Positions 4,259 to 43,659 of a stretch of 64,000 nucleotides of DNA are shown piece by piece. The stretch's first letter is position 1, and every line of letters begins with the position of its first letter. The notes beneath the pieces are model-generated. The model worked only from the letters and a program-made list of their open reading frames with translations, was not told where the DNA came from and did no database searches. The position numbers were made by a program, and so were the translations under genes. Where the stretch lies: positions 24,044,501-24,108,500 of the forward strand of contig NC_090782.1 in NCBI RefSeq assembly GCF_040054535.1, given 5' to 3'. This DNA comes from Antennarius striatus (lineage: Eukaryota > Chordata > Actinopteri > Lophiiformes > Antennariidae).

Positions 4259-4960
4259 GATTGGACCGACTCCAGAGACCTGGGTTTGTTTACAAAACTG
4301 TCAGGGGGCGTGGCAGTGGGCGGAGCAGTGGGCAGGGCTGCCTGTTGATAAAGTTTGTGAAGTCTGGACAGATGGGGGGGTGACACGCCGGCCCCAGTTG
4401 TTTCCCTGCTTTGATCCTGAAAAGACCCCCCACCCCCCATGACAATTCCAGCACCTCATTAGGGTCACACAAATTAACCCCTTGTTTCCTGCCGTGGGCT
4501 TCGGGCTGAAGTCTGATGGAGGGTGACAGCATCGTCCGGCCAGGCGTGTGGAGCAGTGGGGGGGGGGCAGCCAGTTGCATGCTGGGAGGGTTTTTTTTGT
4601 GGGGGCTGTTGGGATTTAGACCCACACTACAATTCCAGACTGGTTCAGGCTCTCATTGTGGTTCAGATTCAGGGTCAAAGGTCGTTTCTTCTTCGGTTCA
4701 AATGTGAAGCTTCCAGATTAACCCTTGTTTGACCAGTAGAACATGTGGAACATGTAGAATATGTGGAACACATAGAACACGTCTGAATGTGTGATCGTTG
4801 CTCCGGAATTGATTTGTCCGTATTAATCAGTTCCAGAGGATGTGGGTGGAGCCAGACAGAAGGGAAAGCGCGTGAAACAGTGAGGCCTTCATCCTCCTTC
4901 ATCATCAGCGGTTCTCCTCAGAAGGTTCTTCCTGACCGACAGGACGCCCTCTGGTCCAAA

Positions 4961-25841
<20,881 letters not shown>

Positions 25842-26099: not shown

Positions 26100-26830
26100 G
26101 TTACATTTAGTCAGGAGATCAGGTGAGGTGGTCAGGTGACAACATCAAGGAGAAGCCGCATGGAGCCCTAGCCTTCTGTTAAACATTAGCTAGAGATAAC
26201 ACCTGTCCAAGGTCCATACTGCAGTCTGTTTTCATCTCCTGACGCCACAAGGCCCTTTAGGTTACCTGACAGGAAGATGTGGGCCTACGGTCGCTTCTCC
26301 TTCACCAGCTGGAGTCCAGTGAGGAGAAACCAGGAGACGAGGAGATCGGCTGCTCCTGCTTGTTGTTTGGAGAGGATGAATGGTGACGTCCTCTGAAGCT
26401 GTTTCCTGTTAGGACCAATCTATCAGCTGCAGATCTATTAGTTTTAAATCTATTAATTTTAGATCTATCAGCTGTAAATCTTTTAGTTGTAGATCTATTA
26501 ATTGTACATCTATCAGTTGTACCTTTTATATGTTGGTCTATTTTATTGGGACTGTGACAAAACGGAATATTTTAAACACGCATTATTAAAATCATCAAAG
26601 AAAAAATGGTATGAAACGCAACAAAAAATTGATTTGTTTATTCTTGGAACCTGTGATTCCATATTTTTGATTAACATCACTAGAAGCACAACCAGCTGGT
26701 TCAGATCACAACATGGAACTGGTAAACAGACATGTAAACAGACATGTGAACAGACATGTAAACAGACTGATAAACAGACATGTAAACACACATGTAAACA
26801 GACTGATAAACAGACATGTAAACAGACCGA
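26100..26830. other. Intergenic region between frem1 and the SAMD9L-like gene
   Basis: Contains two short degenerate arrays: 'ctattagttgtagatc' units at about 26400-26515 and a 12-bp 'aaacagacatgt' array at about 26720-26830. The 164-codon ORF over 26502-26996 runs through the second array (Lys-Gln-Thr-Cys repeats) and is not considered a gene. Confidence 0.6.
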
Positions 26831-26834
26831 GATA

Positions 26835-27345
26835 ACAACCGGACGGAGCGACTTTCGGTTTCGCTTTCCGAACGTAACACTGACTCAGCTCCGTCCAAAG
26901 ACGTCGGGCTCATATTCCACCCACAACCGACTCCCACCCGACTCTGACGCGCCCACCGATCGGTGTGCACCGGAGGTCCGACGGGGTCCCGCGTAGGTAC
27001 CGGACACGGGTCCCGGTAGATAACGGGCCACAGCGGGGACGTGGTGCAGGAGTGACGGTGAGTTCCTGCCGCGATACCTCCAGAAACATTCCGACGGGAA
27101 GCTGCGGACGCGTACCTACTTCCGGTGTTAGCAGTGACGATTAGCCGCCGTTGCGACGTTTTAATTTGTCTGTTTCGGCTTTCCGGACAACACCGCAGCG
27201 GATCCGATGAAGCGTCGGTCATCCGCCCGTAACGCCACGCCACGTAACGCAACTTTTACCGTTAATCCCGCTGCGGAACGCAGCGCTAGCTCGACTTCCT
27301 TAGCCGAGCTGCTAATCAAGGCTGCTTCCTGTCCCGCTCTCTGCT
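26835..27345 (+). promoter_or_regulatory. CpG-rich region, possible promoter of the SAMD9L-like gene
   Basis: Composition changes abruptly to many CpG dinucleotides (ACGTAACGC, CCGCCGTTGCGACG and similar) compared with flanks that are AT-rich or repetitive. It lies 0.4-0.9 kb upstream of the first coding exon, and a good acceptor-like CATAG occurs just before that exon (27728). A non-coding first exon here is plausible but not demonstrated. A 19-bp segment around 27364 is repeated near 27402. Confidence 0.4.
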
Positions 27346-27738: not shown

Positions 27739-30700
27739 ATGAGACGTTCAACAATGGATCAGGATCCTCCTCTTAAAAAATGGACCATGAAGGATGTGCA
27801 CCTCTGGCTTGTGACAAAGGTCAAAGTTCATAAAAGTTGTGCTGATGTGTTTTATGAAGAGGAGGTGTCTGGAGACAATTTGGTTTATTATACAAAGGAA
27901 GATATATTGGATTTGGGAATAAAACACGGTCCTGCAGTCAAAATCATGTCTTATCTGCAGAGCATGAATAAGGAGTCTCAACATAAACAGGATGTCCCAG
28001 CGTATGTGGAAAACTGGACCAAGGAGCAGGTGTTCCAGTGGCTGGTACAGCACGTGAACGTATATGGTCCGTATGCAGACCGGCTCCAGAGGGAGGATGT
28101 GTCCGGAGACTGTTTGGTTCACTTCAGCAAACAGGACTTTAGGGACCTGGAGGTGAAAAGCGGTCCAGCCACAAAGATTCTAGCAGAGCTCCGTAACTTG
28201 AAAACAAAACCAGAAGTGACACTGAAACCAAACCCAGACCAAAGACCAGCTCCAAACCCTACCACAACAGACCTGGGTCCGTCTCAGGCCGCTGCCACCA
28301 AACAAGAAACATGTGACCAGTTAGAGAGAAAAGCTGGAAAAACTGTGGAAAAGGAGTGTGAAAAGATTCAGCAGACATTCCAGAAGACTGCAGGGACAGA
28401 AAACCAGCAGCCAAAGACCTGGGGGGCCAAAAAGACAGAAAGTGTTGTGGTGAGGATGTTTAAAACAAATGTTCCAAAGAGGCTTCAACATTCTGAAAAC
28501 ACTGGTTTTGTAATTTTTGTGCAAAGTTTCCATTAATATATACCTCTGGTTCACAGGAGAATGTAGACCAGGCACACAAATCCAGGACCACAGCAGAAAT
28601 CCATGACATCCTGGAAGACCTTCGAAAAGAAGACCTAAAGAGATTTCACTTCCAGCTGAGGTTGTACAGAGACTCCAAGCACAAACCCTTTTCTCTGAGC
28701 AGCCTGGAGGACAAGGACACAATGGACACCGCTGCACTGATGACTGAGCGCTATGGCAGTGAGGGGGCGTTCAACGTCACCAAACATATTCTCAAGGAAA
28801 TCAATCAGCTGGATCTGGTTCTTCAGATGGAGAAGAGCCAAGGTAAGAGAAGTCGTAACCCTTTACCTACTGAGGCTAAAATTGGTGATTTGTACGTATT
28901 TTGTTATTATGGCTATAAAATGGTACATCTACGGTGAGAGCTACTCTCGGCAGACTGGGGTTACTCAGAACACAGGAACAGCACGGCTTGGTCCAAGGAC
29001 GGACCAGCAAGAGGAAGCGATGTGCCCGGAGGCAGAAGAGAGGAAAGAGGGCTGGCTGGCTAACTCAGCTAAAAGCCAAAAAACCATCGATCCCCTCACT
29101 CTTCTTGGCCAACGTCCGTTCTTTGGACAACAAAATGGACATGCCACGACATGCTACCTCCATGCTACGCCTCCGGTGTCCTGCATAGCATGGAGGCATA
29201 CTCAAAAAAAAAATTCAGAATTTTCTGAGAATCAATTTTTTTTATTGAGAGGAAAGAAAAGAGTCGTTACGCCACTGTGATGATGATACAAGAAAAGATG
29301 TCAGTATTTAGAGAATCAAGTCATACTCTTATAAGAAAGACTTTGATAGTGTTTGGACAGTATTGTATGTACAAACACACAAACAGACAAAATCCAGGAA
29401 ACAAACAAAACACACAGAAATCTAAGACTCTTGAGGAGTACAATTTGGACATGAACTCAGGTCTGAGCAGAGCTTTAGTAGGTGGAGCCTGATTGGAGAT
29501 GGGAAGCTGGTGGCTGTAGCAAACACAGGTGACAGGAATGAGTGGATTGAGAGGGAGAGGATTCAAAATAGGGAGGACAATGCAATGTCAGGGACACATC
29601 TAGGCCTACATGCAGACAGAGAATAGAAGTGAAAATCTGAAAGTGGGAGAATTGTTTTCTAAAGTTGTACGTGAAAAGTTCAAAAAATTGATTCGTTGAA
29701 TGCATTTGTTCTGTTATTCTCTCAGGTCAACAGGCGCATAACTTCTCCAAGGCAGTTCTGAAGAGAGAAGCTAACCAAGGAGACAAGCTGAGAAATTTAC
29801 TAACATGTGGTGGGAACTCGCTGGACAATTACGACAGGTTTGTTGTTGTGGTAAACAAGAGTGCTCCAGAACAAATTCAGCACCTCCAGTTTTTGATGAA
29901 GATGAAACTGTTCTGCGTGCTGGACTTCAACCCTGACTCTGAATGTCCTGGTGGACTCTGTCATTCATACACACAGTCCAGGCTGGCTAATTTGCATGCG
30001 CCATCACAATATCAAGGACAGACGGACACAGTAATTGGGAACCTGAACCTCTTCAAGCAGACCAGTTGGGTCTTCTGCAATGGCAGACGGAACTTTGATG
30101 ATGACTCCAGCAAGGAGCTGGACTACAAGGACTGGTTGAGGAAGTCCTGCAGACATGTAGAACAGTTGGTGGGGTTCATTTGCAACCCCGAGGTGTTTCG
30201 CCATGGAAGAATTCTCATCATCTTCCTCCTTCTGTCCCCTGTGGACACTGAGAAGGACCCCTTCTTTGACACCTATAAGTGTTTCATCAAACACATTGAA
30301 GAGGAGAGTGTCATCAACATATGTGAGTCTCAGGACACATATTTGAAGTGGAGGGAGCTTATTCAGGATAAGTGTCTCTACGATATTGATAAGTTTTCCA
30401 TATATGAGCTAAACCTGAGTGAGATCAGTGGTACCATAACAGCACTGGATCCGTTTGGTCAGCCATCTAGGAGGCTGCTACCATCCTCTGGTTCCAGTGC
30501 GGTTGTCCTAACCCAGAAAGACGTGGACTTCATGATGGCTCTGGACATCCTGTGCCTGAACCAATGCGAAAATATTTACGACGAAAACAGCTCTGAGTTT
30601 CACGACCTCAGAATCAAAGTGGAAGAGGAGTTCTACAAAGGAGGCAAAGTCAAGTGGTGGAACTTCTACTTCTGTGAAAAAGACAGGAAAAAGCCATTTG

Positions 30701-33354
30701 TGAAACGGTACAAGTTTGAGAGCTTGAAGAAAATGGTCAGGGCTCAGCTGAAGGATCCCAGCAATGTGTGTGATGTGATCAATCTGTTCCACAATCCAGG
30801 TTGTGGTGGAACCACCTTAGCGATGCATGTGATGTGGGATCTCCGTCAGGAGGTCAGGTGTGCCGTGCTGATTGATAACACACTGCCCAAAATAGAAGTG
30901 GCCATTCAGATCAGAAAACTGATGCAACTCGAAAGTGAGAAGCCATCTCCGGTTTTCCTGTTAGTTGATGATTCCAAGGAAAGTGACAGTATTAACGATC
31001 TTGTAAACTGCATTTACAAATCTGAGCTGGATAGCTTAAATGTGAGCACGAGCGACGCCCCAACCTGCAAAGTGGTCATCCTTAACTGTGTCCGTTCCCA
31101 AAGCCCCAAAGAGCTGTACAAGAAGCAGGGCCCGGTGCAGAGTCAGTACATCACTGCCTCCCTGACAAAAGAGGAGCAGATGGAGTTTGAAAAGAAACTA
31201 AAAGAGCTCAAAGAAACACATGAAAAACCAGAAAACTTTTACAGCTTCATGTTCCTGAAAAGCAATTTTGACCAGAAATATGTGGTTGACCTAGCTCGTA
31301 ACACATTGGAGAACTTTGATTTCAGTTGCAAGAAGGATCAGCTGTTTGCATTTTTAGCCTTGCTAAAAACCTACGAGGCAAAATCTGAAATCTCTCTTTC
31401 CCTCTGTGAAGACTTCCTGGGGATAAAAGTAATTCGCTGGCAGGATGAGAGTGTCATGGACAGAATGAAGCCATTCTCCGACTTTCTCATCATTGACATT
31501 GGAGAAAAATGGGGAGTCTGCAAAATAATACGAGTCCTTCATCAGGCCATTGCATCTGCCTGTCTGGAAGAGTTAGATCAGAGCTTCAGTTTGAAAGTAA
31601 GTGAAATCACAATGGAGATTCTTCTATGTGATCTCTTCTTTAGTGAGGGAGTAGTCAAAGACAACTTTATGTTCTCAGTTCAACAAATGTTGATAGAAAG
31701 GCAGCTCAAACAAGGGGGTAATGATAGAGAACCGTTTTCACCTCTGATTGACAAAATCCACAACCAGCAAGGAAGACAAACTGTCCAAGATATCTTTGCG
31801 AAAGCATCATCTAGGTTTGTGAAGAGTGCCTCCATTCCTCAGGCACTGGCCAGATATTTGTGCATCAAAGTAAAGGACTTCCCAGAGGCCTTGAGATGGG
31901 CCGAAAAGGCCAAGAAAATTGTTGAGAATCCATACACGTTTGACACCATTGGTCAGATTCACAAAACCAACCTAAAAGCCAACAATCAAAAGGAAAAGCA
32001 GCTGAAGTCGCAAAATCCAGAGGACTTCAACAAAAACATTCATTTAGCAGCCAATGCTATCACAACGTTCAAAGCGGCACAAGAGCTTGCAAATGCCGAG
32101 GATGAACCTGAAGTCAAAGGTTCTGAGGATGAGTTGGATGACCAACCCAGAAGGTCGTACAATGTGAAGGGATATGTGGGCGTACTGGAGATAATCTTCC
32201 TGGTTTTCGACATGTTGGGAAGACTGCCATTCTTTGACAAAAGTGATCCAGTGAAGAAGATGTACTTGCAGACATTTCTGCAGAAGGCACTGCCGATCAC
32301 TAGTGTCTTCAAGGAGGACAATGAGATCAACAACAGGCTGGAGGAGATCATCAGAGAGCAAGAAAGTTTTCTGCACACTCTGAAAAGTGAAGCTTCAGAA
32401 ATGTTTGAACGTCTCGAATCTTACTTCACATTCATAAAACGCAACAGTTCAGAGTACGATTCAAAGAACCGGTCCACCGTTTCCACTCTCTTTCGGGAGT
32501 ATGTTGTCCTGTTTTGCTCCAAGTCAGAGGAAATGAAAAGAGAACGACAAAATAATCCCCGTCTCAATGTGCAGATTGATATTGAAGAGAGGAGATTGCT
32601 ACTGGAGGAGAAACAAGCCAACCGGTTTGCAGGGATACTTCAGTACTTGGATAAACCCAACACCAAAGACATTGAGTGGATCACTACCTGCTATGCATTT
32701 TTGCAACAACAACAGCAATTTGTTGACAAAAAACAAAAGACAAGAGATACCACCAATTATATTTTATCAAATATCATTCTTTATCTTTTCAATCCCAAAT
32801 CCAAGTTAGTGAAGAGTCACAGCCAACTCTCCGCACTGCTCCAGAGAACCCTTGACGATGTTGGACGCTGGTATCCCTTCCCAGATCCATACTACCTGGC
32901 TCTGCTGTTATTTTGGCCCAGTCCTTCTCAGGAGAACACAGATATCAGAACATACATCAACTCGATCCAGAAGTCATCACGGCAGCGCTTGGCTTTATTT
33001 CCAAACAGGAATGCTGTTGCCCATTTCTATTTGGGGAAAGGAAATGGATTGAAGAGGCTCATTTCTAAACCACAGCTAGATGAAAATTTTACAGATATTC
33101 CCCGAAACACCTTGGCACAGAACTGGAGGAATGGTCATATATTTAAAGAGAAAGAAATAATGAAGTGCCTCCAACGAGTCAATGGAACCATTGAGCAAGG
33201 AGATGTGTTTGCCAACTATGGAGGACTGAAGATTCCTGTACGCCCAGCTCTCATTGGTGGGATAAGAAGTGGTTATAGTACAGAAAAAGTTTCTTTCTAT
33301 GTTGGCTTTGCTATTAAAGGACCACTAGCTTATGATATCCAACAAGAAAAGTAA
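27739..33354 (+). CDS. samd9l: SAMD9/SAMD9L-like protein with two SAM domains and a pyrin domain
   Basis: Exons 27739-28449, 28557-28842 and 29726-33354 join in phase to 1,541 aa. Exon 1 encodes two SAM domains (about 15-76 and 92-152). Exon 2 encodes a pyrin/DAPIN death-fold domain, recognised by ILEDLRKEDLKRFHFQL and the spaced AALMTERYGSEGA block. Exon 3 carries the SAMD9 body: an Alba-like N-terminal part (SWVFCNGR), the WWNFYF segment, a P-loop NTPase with Walker A NPGCGGTTLAMH (near 30790-30830) and Walker B-like LLVDD, long helical regions, and the C-terminal OB-like end with KVSFYVGFAIKGPLAYDI. SAMD9 and SAMD9L of mammals have about 1,590 aa and one SAM domain, act in the cytosol as interferon-linked antiviral and growth-restricting factors, and lack a PYD. 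The second ATG (27754, acaATGg) has the better start context and would remove 5 residues. The paralog assignment within the SAMD9 family is not resolved. Confidence 0.9.
28934..29150 (+). mobile_element. LINE fragment (endonuclease start) in samd9l intron 2
   Basis: Two overlapping frames encode RCARRQKRGKRAGWL and PSLFLANVRSLDNKMD. This is the characteristic start of the endonuclease domain of Rex1/CR1-like fish LINEs. It is frameshifted and truncated. The reverse transcriptase at 42541-43353 may belong to the same family. Confidence 0.65.
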
Positions 33355-33662: not shown

Positions 33663-33668
33663 AATAAA
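33663..33668 (+). terminator. AATAAA poly(A) signal of the SAMD9L-like gene
   Basis: Canonical hexamer about 310 bp after the stop codon, followed by T-rich sequence. Confidence 0.6.
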
Positions 33669-35877: not shown

Positions 35878-36232
35878 ACTATTTTACACCAAGGGAAAAG
35901 TCAGGATCAAAGCAGAAAAGTTGTTTTTATTTGGATTCAAGTCAGGAGTTGTGATTATTCAGTTTATTAGTACTAGAAGGACCAGTGTGAATTACATTAG
36001 ATCAAAGCCGTGATCTCGTGTCCTTTGATTGTAGGTGCAGTATGACCAGTCATACAATACGTATTGATCAATAGATATAGATACATAGAATTATAGGGAT
36101 GCATATTATATATGTACATGTCTGTCACATGTTTTTTTGATTTTGTGTCCTTTGATCACATGTTCTTTGATCACATGTTTTTTGAAATCATATATCAGGT
36201 TTCCAAATATAACAGAATTTTGTCCCAACCAA

Positions 36233-38821
36233 ATGATGGAACTGAATGAAGAACACAGCAACACCTCTGAACAGGTGCCAGTGGAGGTGCCGGTGGAGGT
36301 GCTAGCTGAGGCACTATCTAGCACCTCCACGTTAGTGGAGGTGCCAGTCGAGGCGCCAGTTGAGGTATACAACAAGGCCTCTGACAGTGATTCCAAAGAC
36401 AATTCTGACAGTGACTCCAGAGAGAACTCTGAGGAAACTTCTGACAAGACCTCTGATGAGGAGCTGGACGAGGTGTATGACCAAATTGTCATTGAAAGCA
36501 TCTTCTATTTCTTGGCATGGATGACAACTAGACAGTGGATGTTGCTAAAAGCAGGAAAACCTGATAATGCCACAAAAACTCAGTTGGCAGAGGTGCTTCT
36601 AAACATCGTGTCAACCCAGGCAACTGCCATGATCAAACACCTCAACCGCAGAGATAATGCTTTGTCTATAACACAAATTCACCAGATTCACTGCGACAGA
36701 CTCCAACAGAGTGTCTGCAGAGCCCTGGGACTGTCCCGACATGCTGTCATCACACACATGCTGGACAAGGTGACCAATGTAACAGATGTGTTTGTCAGTA
36801 TGTATACGAATAAGAGAAAGACAAATGTTGTGTCATCCCTGCAAGTGAACAATCTCGTTATGGAAGCCATTAAAGTTTTCCAGACCATACCCAACAACCG
36901 CAGATGCCATGCACAACTAACAACGAAGTTCTTACGTGAAAGTCACTTTCTTGAGGTAGGTGATCCCAGAAATCTGCATTCACAACAAGAACTTATTGGG
37001 GTTCTGAGAGACCTTTTAGCTTCCATTGTGACGTACACGTTGAAATTTCCACATCGCTTTGAAGCTGAAGTCTTTGAACAGCTAGCTAATATTTCAGATG
37101 AAATTTATGCAGCAGTCGGTACAAAAGATGTCGAGGAACTCAACAGGTTGATAAAATCATTATTCATGCAATGTATAGCCAAAGCGTGGAACCATCGAGC
37201 AAAGGGACAGCTGACCTGGCCTGTGCTTTTCAAATTTCACGCTGAAACCACTCAATTAAATGACTGTAAGAAACTGTGGCCAAACAAACAAAACCATGTT
37301 TTACAATATGAAGTAGTGAAACCATCAGATCAAGGGCCTGGTGAAGATGAGGACATGAAATTTTGGGTTTTCTCTTCCCTGATAAATTGGTGGTGTGAGA
37401 CAATTGACCTTGAAAGTTACTGTGAAAGGGTGGTGGTCGCCCTGATGAAGAAAGCCGTAGAAGTACCATTAGAGGTCAAAGTTGACAATTTCATCCCCAT
37501 GATTGCATCATTTTTGGACTGGGTAACGTACGAACAGTGGGAAATGATTAAAATAGGAAAGCCAGATCATGCCACAAAAATGAAATTAGCTGAGCTGCTT
37601 TTGGATATGCTGGTGATTCCAGCCATAGTTTTGAGGGACGCACTCGACAACAATGATAAATCCGTGTCTATTGAGGGTATTCTGGAGACTCTGGCTGTCA
37701 CACACATTCGTAGTTTTTGTGAAGCTCTATGCGTTCGGAAAAAGGCCCGCTGGCATGATCACATAAGAAAGTGGTCAGACTTGATCATTGTAGAACTTGA
37801 CCGATATATCAACTGCCATGATAGACCACAATTTTTTAATTGCTGCAACATTAACTCATTAGTCAATCATGGAATCAAAATGTTGGAGCTAATGATGGAA
37901 CACACCTCCCACAAAGATCGCACGCACACACCTCACTGCAAATTATTGGAAAGGGAACATATGTACCTCAGATTAGTAAAAGGCGACAACCAGACAGATT
38001 TAATATCTAATGCCATACTGAAACGTCTCATCCGTGAGCTGCAGGGCATCCTGGCCTTCATTGCCAATGACTTGTCAGAGGAAAGCTTGCTTTTGCTAGA
38101 ATTTGAAATCATGAATGAGATTAAACAGGTTTCACACATAATTGCAGAATCACTAATTAAAAAAAACCTGAGAGAAATCAGGTTGAGGACACAATCCTTC
38201 TTACTTGATTGCATCGTCAAAGCATGGAAATTGAGGACAAAAGATCAAATGTTTTACCAACCTTTATTCATCAAAGTTAAATACACTGATGATGAAAATG
38301 CCCGAAGAGTTTTTTCAATCAAAGTCAAACCAAAAAAGAACATATTGAAGGCACGCAAGAATGCTGATGATGATGAACATTATTGTCCCATGATTCATAA
38401 AAAGGTCTTGTCTTTCTTTTCTCTGATAAATTGGTGGTCAAACCATCTTTATCACCGCATTGAAAAAATATCAAACGGCTGGATGACAAAACTGTCACCA
38501 CCAACAGAGTTAGCAGGTGTACCTATTGAACATCTCATTTCATTAATTGACAGTTTGACACTGGAAGAGTGGGAATGTTTATTAAAAGGAACACTTTCTG
38601 AATCCACAAGACAGAAGGTGACAGAGCTAGCTGTTGGCGTACCAAGTTCATGTGGAAATGAGATGCAAGAGCAACAGAGAAAATATTTTGAAAGTCTGAT
38701 GGAAGCAGCTCTTGAAGTAATGCAAACTAAAAATGAAGAAAGGTTGAGTAAAACGAAAAGATTTTTACGTTGGATAAAGAATGCATTTTGTCGACGGTAT
38801 GAGATCACAATTGTCATTTAA
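36233..38821 (+). CDS. Unrecognised 862-aa protein with internal repeats of about 340 residues
   Basis: Single long coding exon. The ATG at 36233 follows an acceptor-like TTTTTTGAAATCATATATCAG at about 36198, so a non-coding upstream exon is likely. The N-terminus (1-85) is low-complexity: PVEV-type repeats, then a Ser/Asp/Glu stretch. Two long copies of one unit follow, about 86-400 and 417-760, and a truncated third begins at about 762. Landmarks recur in order: FLAWMTTRQWMLLKAGKPDN / FLDWVTYEQWEMIKIGKPDH / LIDSLTLEEWECLLKGTLSE; LFMQCIAKAWNHRAK / FLLDCIVKAWKLRTK; FSSLINWW / FFSLINWW. The predicted character is soluble and alpha-helical. I see no membrane segment, signal peptide, nucleotide-binding loop or zinc motif. 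The open frame of 2.6 kb and the conserved repeat landmarks argue for a real gene. I do not recognise the family and assign no function. It lies 2.9 kb downstream of the SAMD9L-like gene on the same strand. Confidence 0.82.
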   Translation: MMELNEEHSNTSEQVPVEVPVEVLAEALSSTSTLVEVPVEAPVEVYNKASDSDSKDNSDSDSRENSEETSDKTSDEELDEVYDQIVIESIFYFLAWMTTRQWMLLKAGKPDNATKTQLAEVLLNIVSTQATAMIKHLNRRDNALSITQIHQIHCDRLQQSVCRALGLSRHAVITHMLDKVTNVTDVFVSMYTNKRKTNVVSSLQVNNLVMEAIKVFQTIPNNRRCHAQLTTKFLRESHFLEVGDPRNLHSQQELIGVLRDLLASIVTYTLKFPHRFEAEVFEQLANISDEIYAAVGTKDVEELNRLIKSLFMQCIAKAWNHRAKGQLTWPVLFKFHAETTQLNDCKKLWPNKQNHVLQYEVVKPSDQGPGEDEDMKFWVFSSLINWWCETIDLESYCERVVVALMKKAVEVPLEVKVDNFIPMIASFLDWVTYEQWEMIKIGKPDHATKMKLAELLLDMLVIPAIVLRDALDNNDKSVSIEGILETLAVTHIRSFCEALCVRKKARWHDHIRKWSDLIIVELDRYINCHDRPQFFNCCNINSLVNHGIKMLELMMEHTSHKDRTHTPHCKLLEREHMYLRLVKGDNQTDLISNAILKRLIRELQGILAFIANDLSEESLLLLEFEIMNEIKQVSHIIAESLIKKNLREIRLRTQSFLLDCIVKAWKLRTKDQMFYQPLFIKVKYTDDENARRVFSIKVKPKKNILKARKNADDDEHYCPMIHKKVLSFFSLINWWSNHLYHRIEKISNGWMTKLSPPTELAGVPIEHLISLIDSLTLEEWECLLKGTLSESTRQKVTELAVGVPSSCGNEMQEQQRKYFESLMEAALEVMQTKNEERLSKTKRFLRWIKNAFCRRYEITIVI

Positions 38822-40717: not shown

Positions 40718-41790
40718 ATGGTGGTGAACCAGATCAGGTTTCAGAACCAAAGATGGACTTCATCTACTCTTGTTGGGACGAATGTTTCCAAAATGGAGCA
40801 GGGAATCCATTTCAGAAAAAAAAAATCCCGCATCCTCAAATCCAAAAGTCCTGGGAGGGTGATACTCTTCAATGAGATCTTCACTGTAAGACAGAGGCTT
40901 ACAGTGAAGAGCTTTATACGTGATCATGAGGATTTTGAATTTTATACTAGATTTAATCTGAAGCCATTGTAAGGATACAGTACTAGGACAGGAGAGATGT
41001 GCTCTCTCCTCCCAGTTCGAGTCAGTATGTGGGCATCTGTGCATTTTGAGCTAATTGAAGAGTCCTAATGGAGGACCTTAAACAGCCCGACAATAAGATA
41101 TTGCAGTAATTCAATCTAGAAGTAACATAGGCATAAGGATAAGAAATTGTGATTTTTTTTCTGTCTTTAAAGGATAAGGAATTTCAAACCTAACCAAAGT
41201 TTCGTAAATGAAAGAAGGCTGTCCGAGACACAGACTTAATATGAGAGTCAAAGGACAGATCTTGATCAAGAATCACTCCCAAGTTCCTGACATCATTAGC
41301 AGAGGAAGGAGCAATGTTATCTAAGTGAATTATAATGTTAGAAAAATCATCTCTAAGATGCTTGAGCCCAATAATAATAACTTCAGTTCTGTTACTGTTA
41401 AACATTAAGAAAATTTGAAGCACCCAGGATTTAATATCCGTAAGGCAGGTCTCTAATTTAATTAGTATGTCGGATTCATTTGTATTAATTGATAAGTATA
41501 ATTTCGTATCCTCTGCATAGCAGTGAAATTTAATGTTATGAATTCTTATATTTCCCAATGGTAAAATATATTAATGAAACAGAACTGACCCCAGAACAGG
41601 TCCTTGAGCTACTCCACAGGTGACAGTCCCTCGATCTGAAGATTTACTATTTATATGGACAAACTGAAATTGGTCGGATAGATATGATCTAAACCAGTCT
41701 AATGCTGAGTCTTTAATCCTCACGTCTCCTTCCAATCTCCGTAGAAGATTATTATGATCAACAGTATCGAATGCTGTTGATTCCTGCCTG
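40718..41790 (-). mobile_element. L2-type LINE fragment (reverse transcriptase C-terminal part)
   Basis: On the minus strand the frames read in order: DTVDHNNLLRRLEGD-like, GTVTCGVAQGPVLGS-like, then FHCYAEDTKLYLSI (the YxDD catalytic motif, here mutated to AEDT). After that come SWVLQIFLMFNSNRTEVIIIG and FKILMITYKALHCKPLSY, the typical C-terminal block of L2/Maui-like elements. Stops and frameshifts interrupt it, so it is inactive. Confidence 0.75.
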
Positions 41791-42065
41791 TTATCCTGAT
41801 TCCTGTTATTGAGCCAGCCCGTTTCCCGGACCCTGCCTTTCGTCGACCCCTCTTTGTCTGCCTGGTTTTTGGATTGCCTTCCTGTGTATGACCTCGTCTG
41901 GTTTTTTTGGACTCTGCCTGTTCGTCTGGTGTTTGGTTTGTTGGAATGATTACCCAGTACCTGACCCCTGCCTGTATTACTAAACCAGTTCTACTTTACT
42001 TGCCCACTACTCTGTCATGCTTTTGGGTTCCCCTTGTCAGTCGTGTTCTAGCCCTGACACAAAGA
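41791..42065 (+). mobile_element. Gypsy-type LTR 3' part (tentative)
   Basis: Pyrimidine-rich sequence with repeated CCTGCC/GTCTGCCTG and an ending TAGCCCTGACAC, resembling the U5 end of fish Gypsy LTRs. No paired LTR was identified. Confidence 0.35.
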
Positions 42066-42164
42066 TTTTGAGGACCACGGATCACATTGGGGCAAGACAT
42101 GGTTTGGTTTGACCACCTGAGATGCGATCTCCTCAGTGCCACCTGGTCAGCAGTCTTGTAGAGT

Positions 42165-43353
42165 AGAGTAGAGTATAACTTTATTTATCCCTTAAGGAGG
42201 TTCCGTCAGGGAAATTACTTTCTCCGTCGCACAGTAAGTACACAAAACACAGAAAAAGCACACAGAAAGCACCAGCACATAGAAAGTAGTACAACACCAA
42301 ATAAAAAGAGTAATAAATAACCCATCAAGAATATATAAATATAAAATCATAAATAGGCATAGAAATAACAACTAAACAAGCCTGGTTAAGTATGGGTAAG
42401 TATGAAATGTCTATAGAGTTTGTATTGTTTTTGCTGTATTGTTTGCGTCGTCCCTCAGCTCTCGTGTGGACTTTCTTCTTCTTCAACTCCCCCACAGAGG
42501 AGTTGAGCAGTTTAATGGCTCAGGGGGATGAAGGAGTTCTTCAGTCTGTTTGTCCTGCATGTTGGGGGGGTTCAGCCTCTGGCTGCTCAGGCTTGTCAGG
42601 CTTCTCTGGTTGTTGGTAACGGTGTGCAGAGGGTGGCTGACGTTGTCCATGATGTCCAGCAGTTTGTCCAAGGTTCTCTTCTCTTCCACCGTTGCCAGAG
42701 GGTCCAGCTTCATCCCGACCACTGAGCTGGCCCGCCTGCATCATCTTGTCCATCCTGGAGAGATCTGCCTTGGTCACGCTTCCTCCCCAACACACCATAG
42801 CGAACGACAGGACGCTGGCGACCACAGACTGATAGAACATCCACAGGAGCTTCCTGCAGACGTTGAATCCCCTAAGCCTCCTCAGAAAGTACTTCCTGCT
42901 CTGTGCTTTCTTGTACAGCTGCCTCATGTTGCTGGTCCAGTCCAGCTTGTTGTCCAGCCACAGCCCAAGATATTTACATGTCTGCACAACCTCCACCTCC
43001 TCTGTTCCTACCAGAACTGGTCTAGGTTGGGGTCTGTCCCTCCTAAAGTCAATGACTAGCGCTTTAGTTTTGGAGGTGTTGAGCTGCAGACTGTTGCTGT
43101 GACACCAGTCAACAAAGTCCCTCACCAAGCATCTATACTCCTGCTCCTCATTGTCCCTGATACATCCCACGATGGCTGTGTCATCTGCGTACTTCTGGAT
43201 GTGACACAGTTCTGAGTTGTAGCAGAAGTCCGCCGTGTACAGGGAGCAGAGGATTGGGGACAAGACAGTCCCCTGTGGAGCAGCGATGCAGCTGACCACA
43301 GTATCAGATGTGGTGTCCTTTAGCCTGATGAAATGCGGTCTGTCGGCACACAT
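42165..43353 (-). mobile_element. Rex1/CR1-like LINE, 3' half
   Basis: Minus strand: a continuous ORF (43353 to 42541) with PQGTVLSPILCSLYTADF and the catalytic KYADDTAIVG, followed by LNTSKTKALVIDFRRD and the thumb/C-terminal region (SVVASVLSFAMVCWGG). The 3' tail at 42165-42235 reads, in reverse complement, GGGATAAATAAAGT followed by an ACTCT-type microsatellite. The same tail occurs at 48841-48892. The ORF lacks the endonuclease and N-terminal RT, so it is 5'-truncated. The family name is inferred from the motifs. Confidence 0.75.
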
Positions 43354-43659
43354 AAAACTTGCACATAAATGGACATCACATTAAAAGAGCGATATTGTAT
43401 ACAGAGATATTGCATGTAAGAAAAGAAAGTTGATTGCACTGGTGGGAAGTTTTTTTTAAAGTTTTTGTTTTGCTGTTTATTGTGGTTTTGGTGAAGAAGC
43501 TATCCCTGAATCTGGTGGTCTGGGTTTTGTGTGGCCTGTAGTGCCAGCTGAAGGGCAACAGGTCAAAATGGTGGTGATCAGACTGGACAGGGAGCAGCTG
43601 GTGATTCGGGTGGAGAGACCCAGATGAAAAAGTTTCTCTACTAGGAGCTCCGGGATGAT

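What the first reader, a model, noticed from the sequence alone, without database searches (positions are those of the whole stretch)
27739..33354. SAMD9-family protein with two SAM domains and a fused pyrin domain
Seen: exon 1 codes for two SAM domains, and exon 2 (phase-compatible, 286 nt) codes for a clear pyrin/DAPIN domain. Exon 3 codes for an otherwise full-length SAMD9-type body with Walker A GCGGTT. Known: mammalian SAMD9 and SAMD9L have one SAM domain and no death-fold domain, and PYDs nucleate inflammasome-type assemblies. Inference: this fish form may couple a SAMD9 STAND-type effector directly to PYD signalling through ASC-like or other PYD partners. If real, it would be a distinct architecture for an antiviral effector.
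Basis: partly seen in the sequence, partly recalled or inferred. Interest (0 to 1): 0.78.

Follow-up and report, generated by a model that had tools for sequence, protein, structure and literature searches.

The report
Fish SAMD9 with pyrin, no nuclease
A fish antiviral-type gene of the SAMD9 family carries two SAM domains and a pyrin domain where human SAMD9 carries its tRNA-cutting domain, so it probably signals through partner proteins instead of cutting tRNA itself; fish proteins with SAM plus pyrin were already reported in 2017.

Summary
Three exons splice in frame (GT-AG) into 1541 aa: exon 1 holds two SAM domains, exon 2 a strong PYRIN domain (62.2 bits, cut-off 22.9), exon 3 a SAMD9 body (E 2.5e-227). 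One detail is wrong: the body is not "otherwise full-length". It begins at about human residue 382, so the tRNase-SA/AlbA_2 effector domain (156-385) is missing, and nothing like it was found in the window. SAM-SAM-PYD stands in its place. In the same genome the tRNase domain was found at three places, all on another contig: two in shortened paralogues with a hydrophobic tail and no detected SAM, PYD, TPR or OB, one degenerate. [quoted passage not shown] I add the tRNase loss in this gene and its separation from nuclease-bearing paralogues. Best reading: an interferon-inducible STAND-like sensor that signals by PYD (ASC-like exons are present) rather than by cutting tRNA. Function is inferred; no transcripts or other fish genomes were available.

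The parts
26853..26868 (-). ISRE/IRF-type element GAAAGCGAAACCGAAA, about 870 bp upstream of the start codon, at the edge of a GC-rich likely promoter (about 26.85-27.4 kb)
   Evidence: 1 in the window, 0.02 expected in shuffles; genome-wide count (1634) not above the reversed-pattern control (1641), so only suggestive; GC profile
27739..28449 (+). exon 1: start codon, two SAM domains, linker; donor GTGAGG (top 1.0% of GTs in the window by a recalled weight matrix)
27775..27966 (+). SAM domain 1 (limits approximate)
   Evidence: (2 stretches)
28012..28203 (+). SAM domain 2
28557..28842 (+). exon 2: pyrin exon, phase 0 in, phase 1 out; donor GTAAGA (top 0.24% of GTs in the window by a recalled weight matrix)
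28599..28820 (+). PYRIN (PYD/DAPIN) domain
   Evidence: (62.2 bits), (61.9 bits)
29726..33354 (+). exon 3: SAMD9 body (SIR2-like, STAND-like P-loop NTPase, TPR, OB regions by alignment to SAMD9, about human 382-1587); no tRNase-SA domain
30799..30816 (+). Walker A GCGGTT (SAMD9-type, Gly in place of Lys), preceded by a His (FHNP) at the place of the family's conserved His
   Evidence: PMC5445408 for the family signature
33663..33668 (+). possible poly(A) signal AATAAA

Best explanation
This is one gene for a SAMD9-family STAND-like protein, SAM-SAM-PYD-SIR2-NTPase(GCGGTT)-TPR-OB, in which the tRNA-cutting effector domain is missing and a pyrin exon, probably taken from an NLR-like gene by exon shuffling, stands at that position. 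Shown: gene model, domains, absence of the tRNase domain. Inferred: the protein is induced by interferon, stays closed until its TPR/OB half senses a viral or stress cue, oligomerises through NTPase and SAM domains, and the clustered PYDs seed ASC or other PYD partners (inflammasome-like signalling or cell death) instead of depleting tRNA-Phe.
For: In-frame GT-AG model; SAM x2 and PYRIN far above the Pfam cut-offs; SAMD9 body over about human 382-1587. The same PDB search with a C12 paralogue hits the tRNase-domain chains 7ksp and 9o0d; exon 3 does not, even at E 10. A tRNase HMM gives at most 4.5 bits in the window against 456 and 228 bits in two C12 loci. The tRNase domain is found at 3 places in the genome, all on C12, none on C7. 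PYD exons elsewhere mostly share the phase-1 donor (7 of 9 examined); the nearest PYD by BLAST lies upstream of a FISNA-NACHT exon on C16. ASC-like PYD and CARD exons lie on C9. ISRE-like element upstream; fish samd9l genes are interferon-induced or raised in infection (PMC6612602, PMC7509425, passages). PMC13245274 (passages): other eukaryotic STAND proteins recruit adaptors, mammalian SAMD9 uses its tRNase directly.
Against: No transcript data. No test that this PYD filaments or binds ASC; it is only 27-38% identical to the 10 other PYDs found, the small tree groups it weakly with C13 and C7b rather than with the NLR-type PYD, and its single-sequence AlphaFold model is poor (pLDDT 59.6). The ISRE pattern is not enriched genome-wide over its control. 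The PYD lies between SAM and body, not at the N-terminus as in NLRPs.
Confidence: 0.6

Rival explanations
1. Regulatory or decoy protein: without tRNase it acts in trans on the nuclease-bearing paralogues (hetero-oligomer through SIR2/NTPase), or dampens PYD signalling, rather than starting an inflammasome.
For: The C12 paralogues keep tRNase+SIR2+part of the NTPase, and no SAM/TPR/OB was detected for them, the complement of this gene; no canonical full-length SAMD9 was found in the assembly (best candidates only).
Against: No evidence of interaction; body identity is only 35-39%; the two kinds lie on different contigs.
Confidence: 0.2
2. The SAM domains are the working signalling part and the PYD is a passive or degenerate passenger.
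For: SAM is proposed to stand in for death-fold domains in vertebrate SAMD9 (PMC5445408); two SAM copies here.
Against: The PYD scores 61.9 bits, sixth of the 11 genomic PYDs, open and in phase; skipping exon 2 breaks the frame, so it cannot simply be left out.
Confidence: 0.13
3. Gene-model artefact: exons 1-2 and exon 3 belong to different genes.
For: No RNA-seq here.
Against: Exon 3 lacks an upstream Met and needs a phase-1 partner, which exon 2 supplies with a strong donor; the same domain combination is reported for other fish (PMC5445408).
Confidence: 0.04

Closest known systems
Fish SAM+Pyrin subfamily of SAMD9 proteins (Mekhedov, Makarova, Koonin 2017, PMC5445408)
   Same: SAMD9 core with both SAM and Pyrin in a fish protein
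   Different: The parts of the text I read (parts 1 and 2 of 4, and passages) do not say whether the subfamily keeps AlbA_2/tRNase or has two SAMs, and its figure is not held; here there are two SAMs and no tRNase
Mammalian SAMD9/SAMD9L (PDB 9zjr, 37ht; tRNase-domain chain 7ksp)
   Same: SIR2-like, GCGGTT NTPase, TPR, OB body over about 1200 aa; SAM at the N-terminus
   Different: No tRNase-SA domain, second SAM, PYD added, coding region in three exons (human coding region in one exon: recalled, no call)
NLRP-type inflammasome sensors
   Same: PYD + STAND-type NTPase + C-terminal repeats; phase-1 PYD exon in this genome's PYD genes
   Different: Body is SAMD9, not NACHT-LRR; PYD is internal
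Chromosome-12 SAMD9-like paralogues of this genome
   Same: SIR2-NTPase core
   Different: They have tRNase and a hydrophobic C-terminal tail; no SAM, PYD, TPR or OB detected

Membership tests
SAMD9 family | SIR2-NTPase-TPR-OB core homologous to SAMD9 | tested here: met
   E 2.5e-227 over about human 382-1587
SAMD9 family | Walker A with GGT/S instead of GKT/S and an upstream His | tested here: met
   FHNPGCGGTT; signature from PMC5445408
SAMD9 family | SAM domain (vertebrate members; missing in some, PMC5445408) | tested here: met
   two stretches
SAMD9/9L anticodon nuclease (tRNase-SA) | tRNase-SA/AlbA_2 domain with catalytic E184, E196, E218, D241 | tested here: not met
   absent in the window, present in C12 paralogues
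Fish SAM+Pyrin SAMD9 subfamily | SAM and Pyrin fused to the SAMD9 core | tested here: met
   on the gene model; subfamily stated in PMC5445408
Fish SAM+Pyrin SAMD9 subfamily | clusters with the published fish members in a tree | not testable with these tools
   no other fish genomes are held; the one genome-contig scan gave no relative
Inflammasome sensor | PYD domain | tested here: met
   PYRIN 62.2 bits
Inflammasome sensor | PYD filament formation and ASC recruitment | not testable with these tools
   needs protein assays

The most novel reading that the evidence does not exclude
In this fish the SAMD9 system is split in two: a nuclease-free SAM-SAM-PYD sensor/scaffold on one chromosome and sensor-free, tail-anchored tRNases (catalytic residues kept) on another, either working together in trans or having divided the ancestral sensor-plus-nuclease job into PYD signalling and membrane-bound tRNA cutting.
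Probability: 0.25. Interest if true: 0.75.

Novelty: new member of a known kind. Interest (0 to 1): 0.48.

Why it matters
Mammalian SAMD9/9L are described as unusual among eukaryotic STAND proteins because they carry their own effector, a tRNA nuclease (PMC13245274). A member with an adaptor domain in place of the nuclease would show that the SAMD9 sensing half is modular. It would also give a way to ask what that half senses, with an inflammasome-type read-out that is separate from translation shut-off.

Tried and rejected
Searching the genome with Pfam PF04326 (SLFN_AlbA_2) found nothing, but this is uninformative: Pfam also gives no hit for the three C12 frames that have the domain. I replaced it by a search with a paralogue's own tRNase domain and an HMM of two paralogues.

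AlphaFold of the PYD exon alone was poor, so no fold search was run. One scan of prokaryote genome contigs with the SAMD9 alignment gave 60 pattern matches and no relative. Caspase-type peptidase domains are at many places (32 matches), none close to a PYD match, so no PYD-caspase gene was identified.

Literature: SAMD9 with PYD and zebrafish gave 2 papers, neither on this by title; SAMD9 with PYD and teleost gave none. Listings (15 of 15; 25 of 243; 15 of 125; 30 of 55; 15 of 16,334; 12 of 1,327; 4 of 4) were seen as listings only. Of the eight papers opened, PMC5445408 was read in parts (parts 1 and 2 of 4) and the other seven as passages; only PMC5445408 was seen to state the SAM+Pyrin architecture. 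PMC8928420 says that zebrafish candidates share under 30% identity with human SAMD9L; PMC8265083 reports higher SAMD9L expression in resistant grass carp; neither mentions a PYD on SAMD9 in the passages seen.

That exon 3 is a full-length SAMD9 was rejected. A whole-genome search with exon 1 (the SAM exon) did not complete, so I cannot say whether other SAMD9-like SAM exons exist; in the 8 C12 loci searched a small SAM profile made from the two SAMs here found none.

Full report
Check. Exon 1 scores SAM_1 at 5.5e-21 with two stretches and exon 2 PYRIN at 5.4e-17 (62.2 bits, cut-off 22.9). In the PDB, exon 2 is closest to the PYDs of NLRP6, NLRP10 and NLRP3. Exon 3 lies in an open frame of 1220 codons and matches SAMD9 at E 2.5e-227. 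Its first methionine is residue 390 of the spliced protein, inside the conserved SIR2-like region, so it is unlikely to be a gene of its own. The two donors rank in the top 1.0% and 0.24% of GTs in the window by a simple weight matrix recalled from memory.

What is missing. The exon 3 match covers positions 227-1432 of the 1434-residue SAMD9 chain 37ht. With an offset of 155, all seven human residues named in PMC13245274 (passages: E184, E196, K198, K214, E218, R221, D241) fall on the right letters of 37ht in the alignment (counted by eye), so I take the chain as human 156-1589 and the match as starting at about 382. The tRNase-SA effector domain is 156-385. It is therefore absent. A C12 paralogue searched the same way hits the 230- and 234-residue SAMD9 chains 7ksp (2.4e-36) and 9o0d (2.8e-33), which by length and name are the human and rabbit tRNase domains (PMC12331169, passages). 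Exon 3 does not hit them even at E 10. An HMM of two paralogue tRNase domains gives at best 4.5 bits (E 2.6) in the open frames of 20 or more codons in all six frames of the window, introns included, against 456 and 228 bits in two C12 loci; the first of these supplied one of the two training sequences, the second none. Exons 1 and 2 give no SAMD9 chain in the PDB at E 0.01.

The rest of the family in this genome. The window lies in an unnamed 548-Mb assembly of 42 contigs. The body query matches three places: this gene and two on contig C12, 37-39% identical and only over the SIR2-NTPase half. The tRNase query also matches three places, all on C12. Two are open frames of 793 and 816 codons with tRNase, SIR2 and part of the NTPase, ending in a hydrophobic stretch (best 19-residue Kyte-Doolittle means 2.57 and 2.58). 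In the 8 loci of C12 searched, no TPR/OB piece, SAM or PYD was found (the SAM profile was small, so a diverged SAM could be missed). Read by eye, one copy keeps seven of the seven named residues and the other six of seven (K198 is T). The third is a tRNase-only frame of 259 codons, which by eye has lost E196 and D241. So no canonical SAM-tRNase-body SAMD9 was found here. These searches score only the best candidates, and the assembly may be incomplete.

Origin and partners of the PYD. The genome has at least 11 PYRIN matches over the cut-off, this one included. The window PYD is nearest by BLAST to one on C16 (38%). That one lies about 3.8 kb upstream of a FISNA-NACHT frame on the same strand, probably a fish NLR, though the two exons were not shown to be joined and reverse-transcriptase-like frames lie between them (by eye). 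The small tree disagrees: it groups the window PYD weakly with those on C13 and C7 (supports 0.53 and 0.86). Of the 9 other PYD exons examined (C13 left out), 7 have their best donor in phase 1, and C16 and C22 at the same 58-nt distance as here; four of the seven score low, in C22 a phase-2 site is nearly as good, and C9c and C7b do not fit. This fits exon shuffling without proving it. An ASC-like pair, PYD then CARD on one strand about 2 kb apart, is on C9, not shown to be one gene. A 16-base ISRE-type element lies about 870 bp upstream of the start codon (1 found, 0.02 expected in window shuffles). Genome-wide the pattern is no commoner than its reversed control (1634 against 1641), so it is only suggestive.

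How it most likely works. In the model reviewed in PMC13245274 (passages), SAMD9 is a closed STAND-like protein whose C-terminal half senses and whose tRNase acts, and the review contrasts this with other eukaryotic STAND proteins, which recruit adaptors. Here the effector place is taken by SAM-SAM-PYD. The simplest inference is a return to adaptor signalling: sensing, oligomerisation, clustering of PYDs, nucleation of ASC or another PYD partner. None of these steps is shown.

Comparison with what is known. Mekhedov et al. 2017 (PMC5445408; [quoted passage not shown] They also predict inflammasome-like particles. Their figure is not held, so I cannot tell whether their fish subfamily is tRNase-less or has two SAMs. 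A fish samd9l is induced by interferon in salmonid cells (PMC6612602, passages), SAMD9L is listed among interferon-stimulated genes raised in salmon gill poxvirus disease (PMC7509425, passages), and four samd9-like genes belong to a trout antiviral response, there discussed as potentially targeting tRNA-Phe (PMC12648952, passages). Which SAMD9 architecture these genes have was not seen. If some are like this one, the tRNA-Phe reading will not hold for every fish copy.

Verdict. Observation confirmed, one detail corrected, interpretation partly supported and already proposed. The remaining interest is the clean absence of the effector domain in this gene and its survival in complementary, tail-bearing paralogues.

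Noticed in passing
own genome C12:5395219-5397597 + (L015 7219-9597) and C12:5345708-5348155 - (L016 3708-6155): Two SAMD9-like frames on opposite strands about 47 kb apart, with tRNase+SIR2+part of the NTPase and a hydrophobic C-terminal tail, no SAM, TPR or OB detected; possible membrane-anchored anticodon nucleases.
   Followed up: partly
own genome C12:5904385-5905161 - (L024 5385-6161): A tRNase-only SAMD9-like frame of 259 codons that by eye lacks E196 and D241; probably a dead copy or decoy.
   Followed up: partly
own genome C7:24170025-24174375 (L017): A PYRIN exon and, 4 kb away on the same strand, a CARD frame with a weak PYRIN match (22.1 bits, under the cut-off), about 62-66 kb beyond the window: another death-fold locus close to this gene.
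   Followed up: partly
window 36089-38821 +: Open frame of 910 codons without a Pfam family over its cut-off, with a motif repeated inside it by eye; 12 other places in the genome match weakly at 23-33% identity.
   Followed up: partly
window 4787-13041 +, probably further right: Frem-type extracellular matrix gene (Frem_N, Cadherin_3) as left neighbour; its right end was not settled.
   Followed up: partly
window 41190-43380 -: Frames that look by eye like a reverse transcriptase of a LINE-type element; no search run.
   Followed up: no
window 26720-26830: Short tandem array of an 'acatgtaaacag'-like unit just upstream of the ISRE-like element, seen by eye.
   Followed up: no
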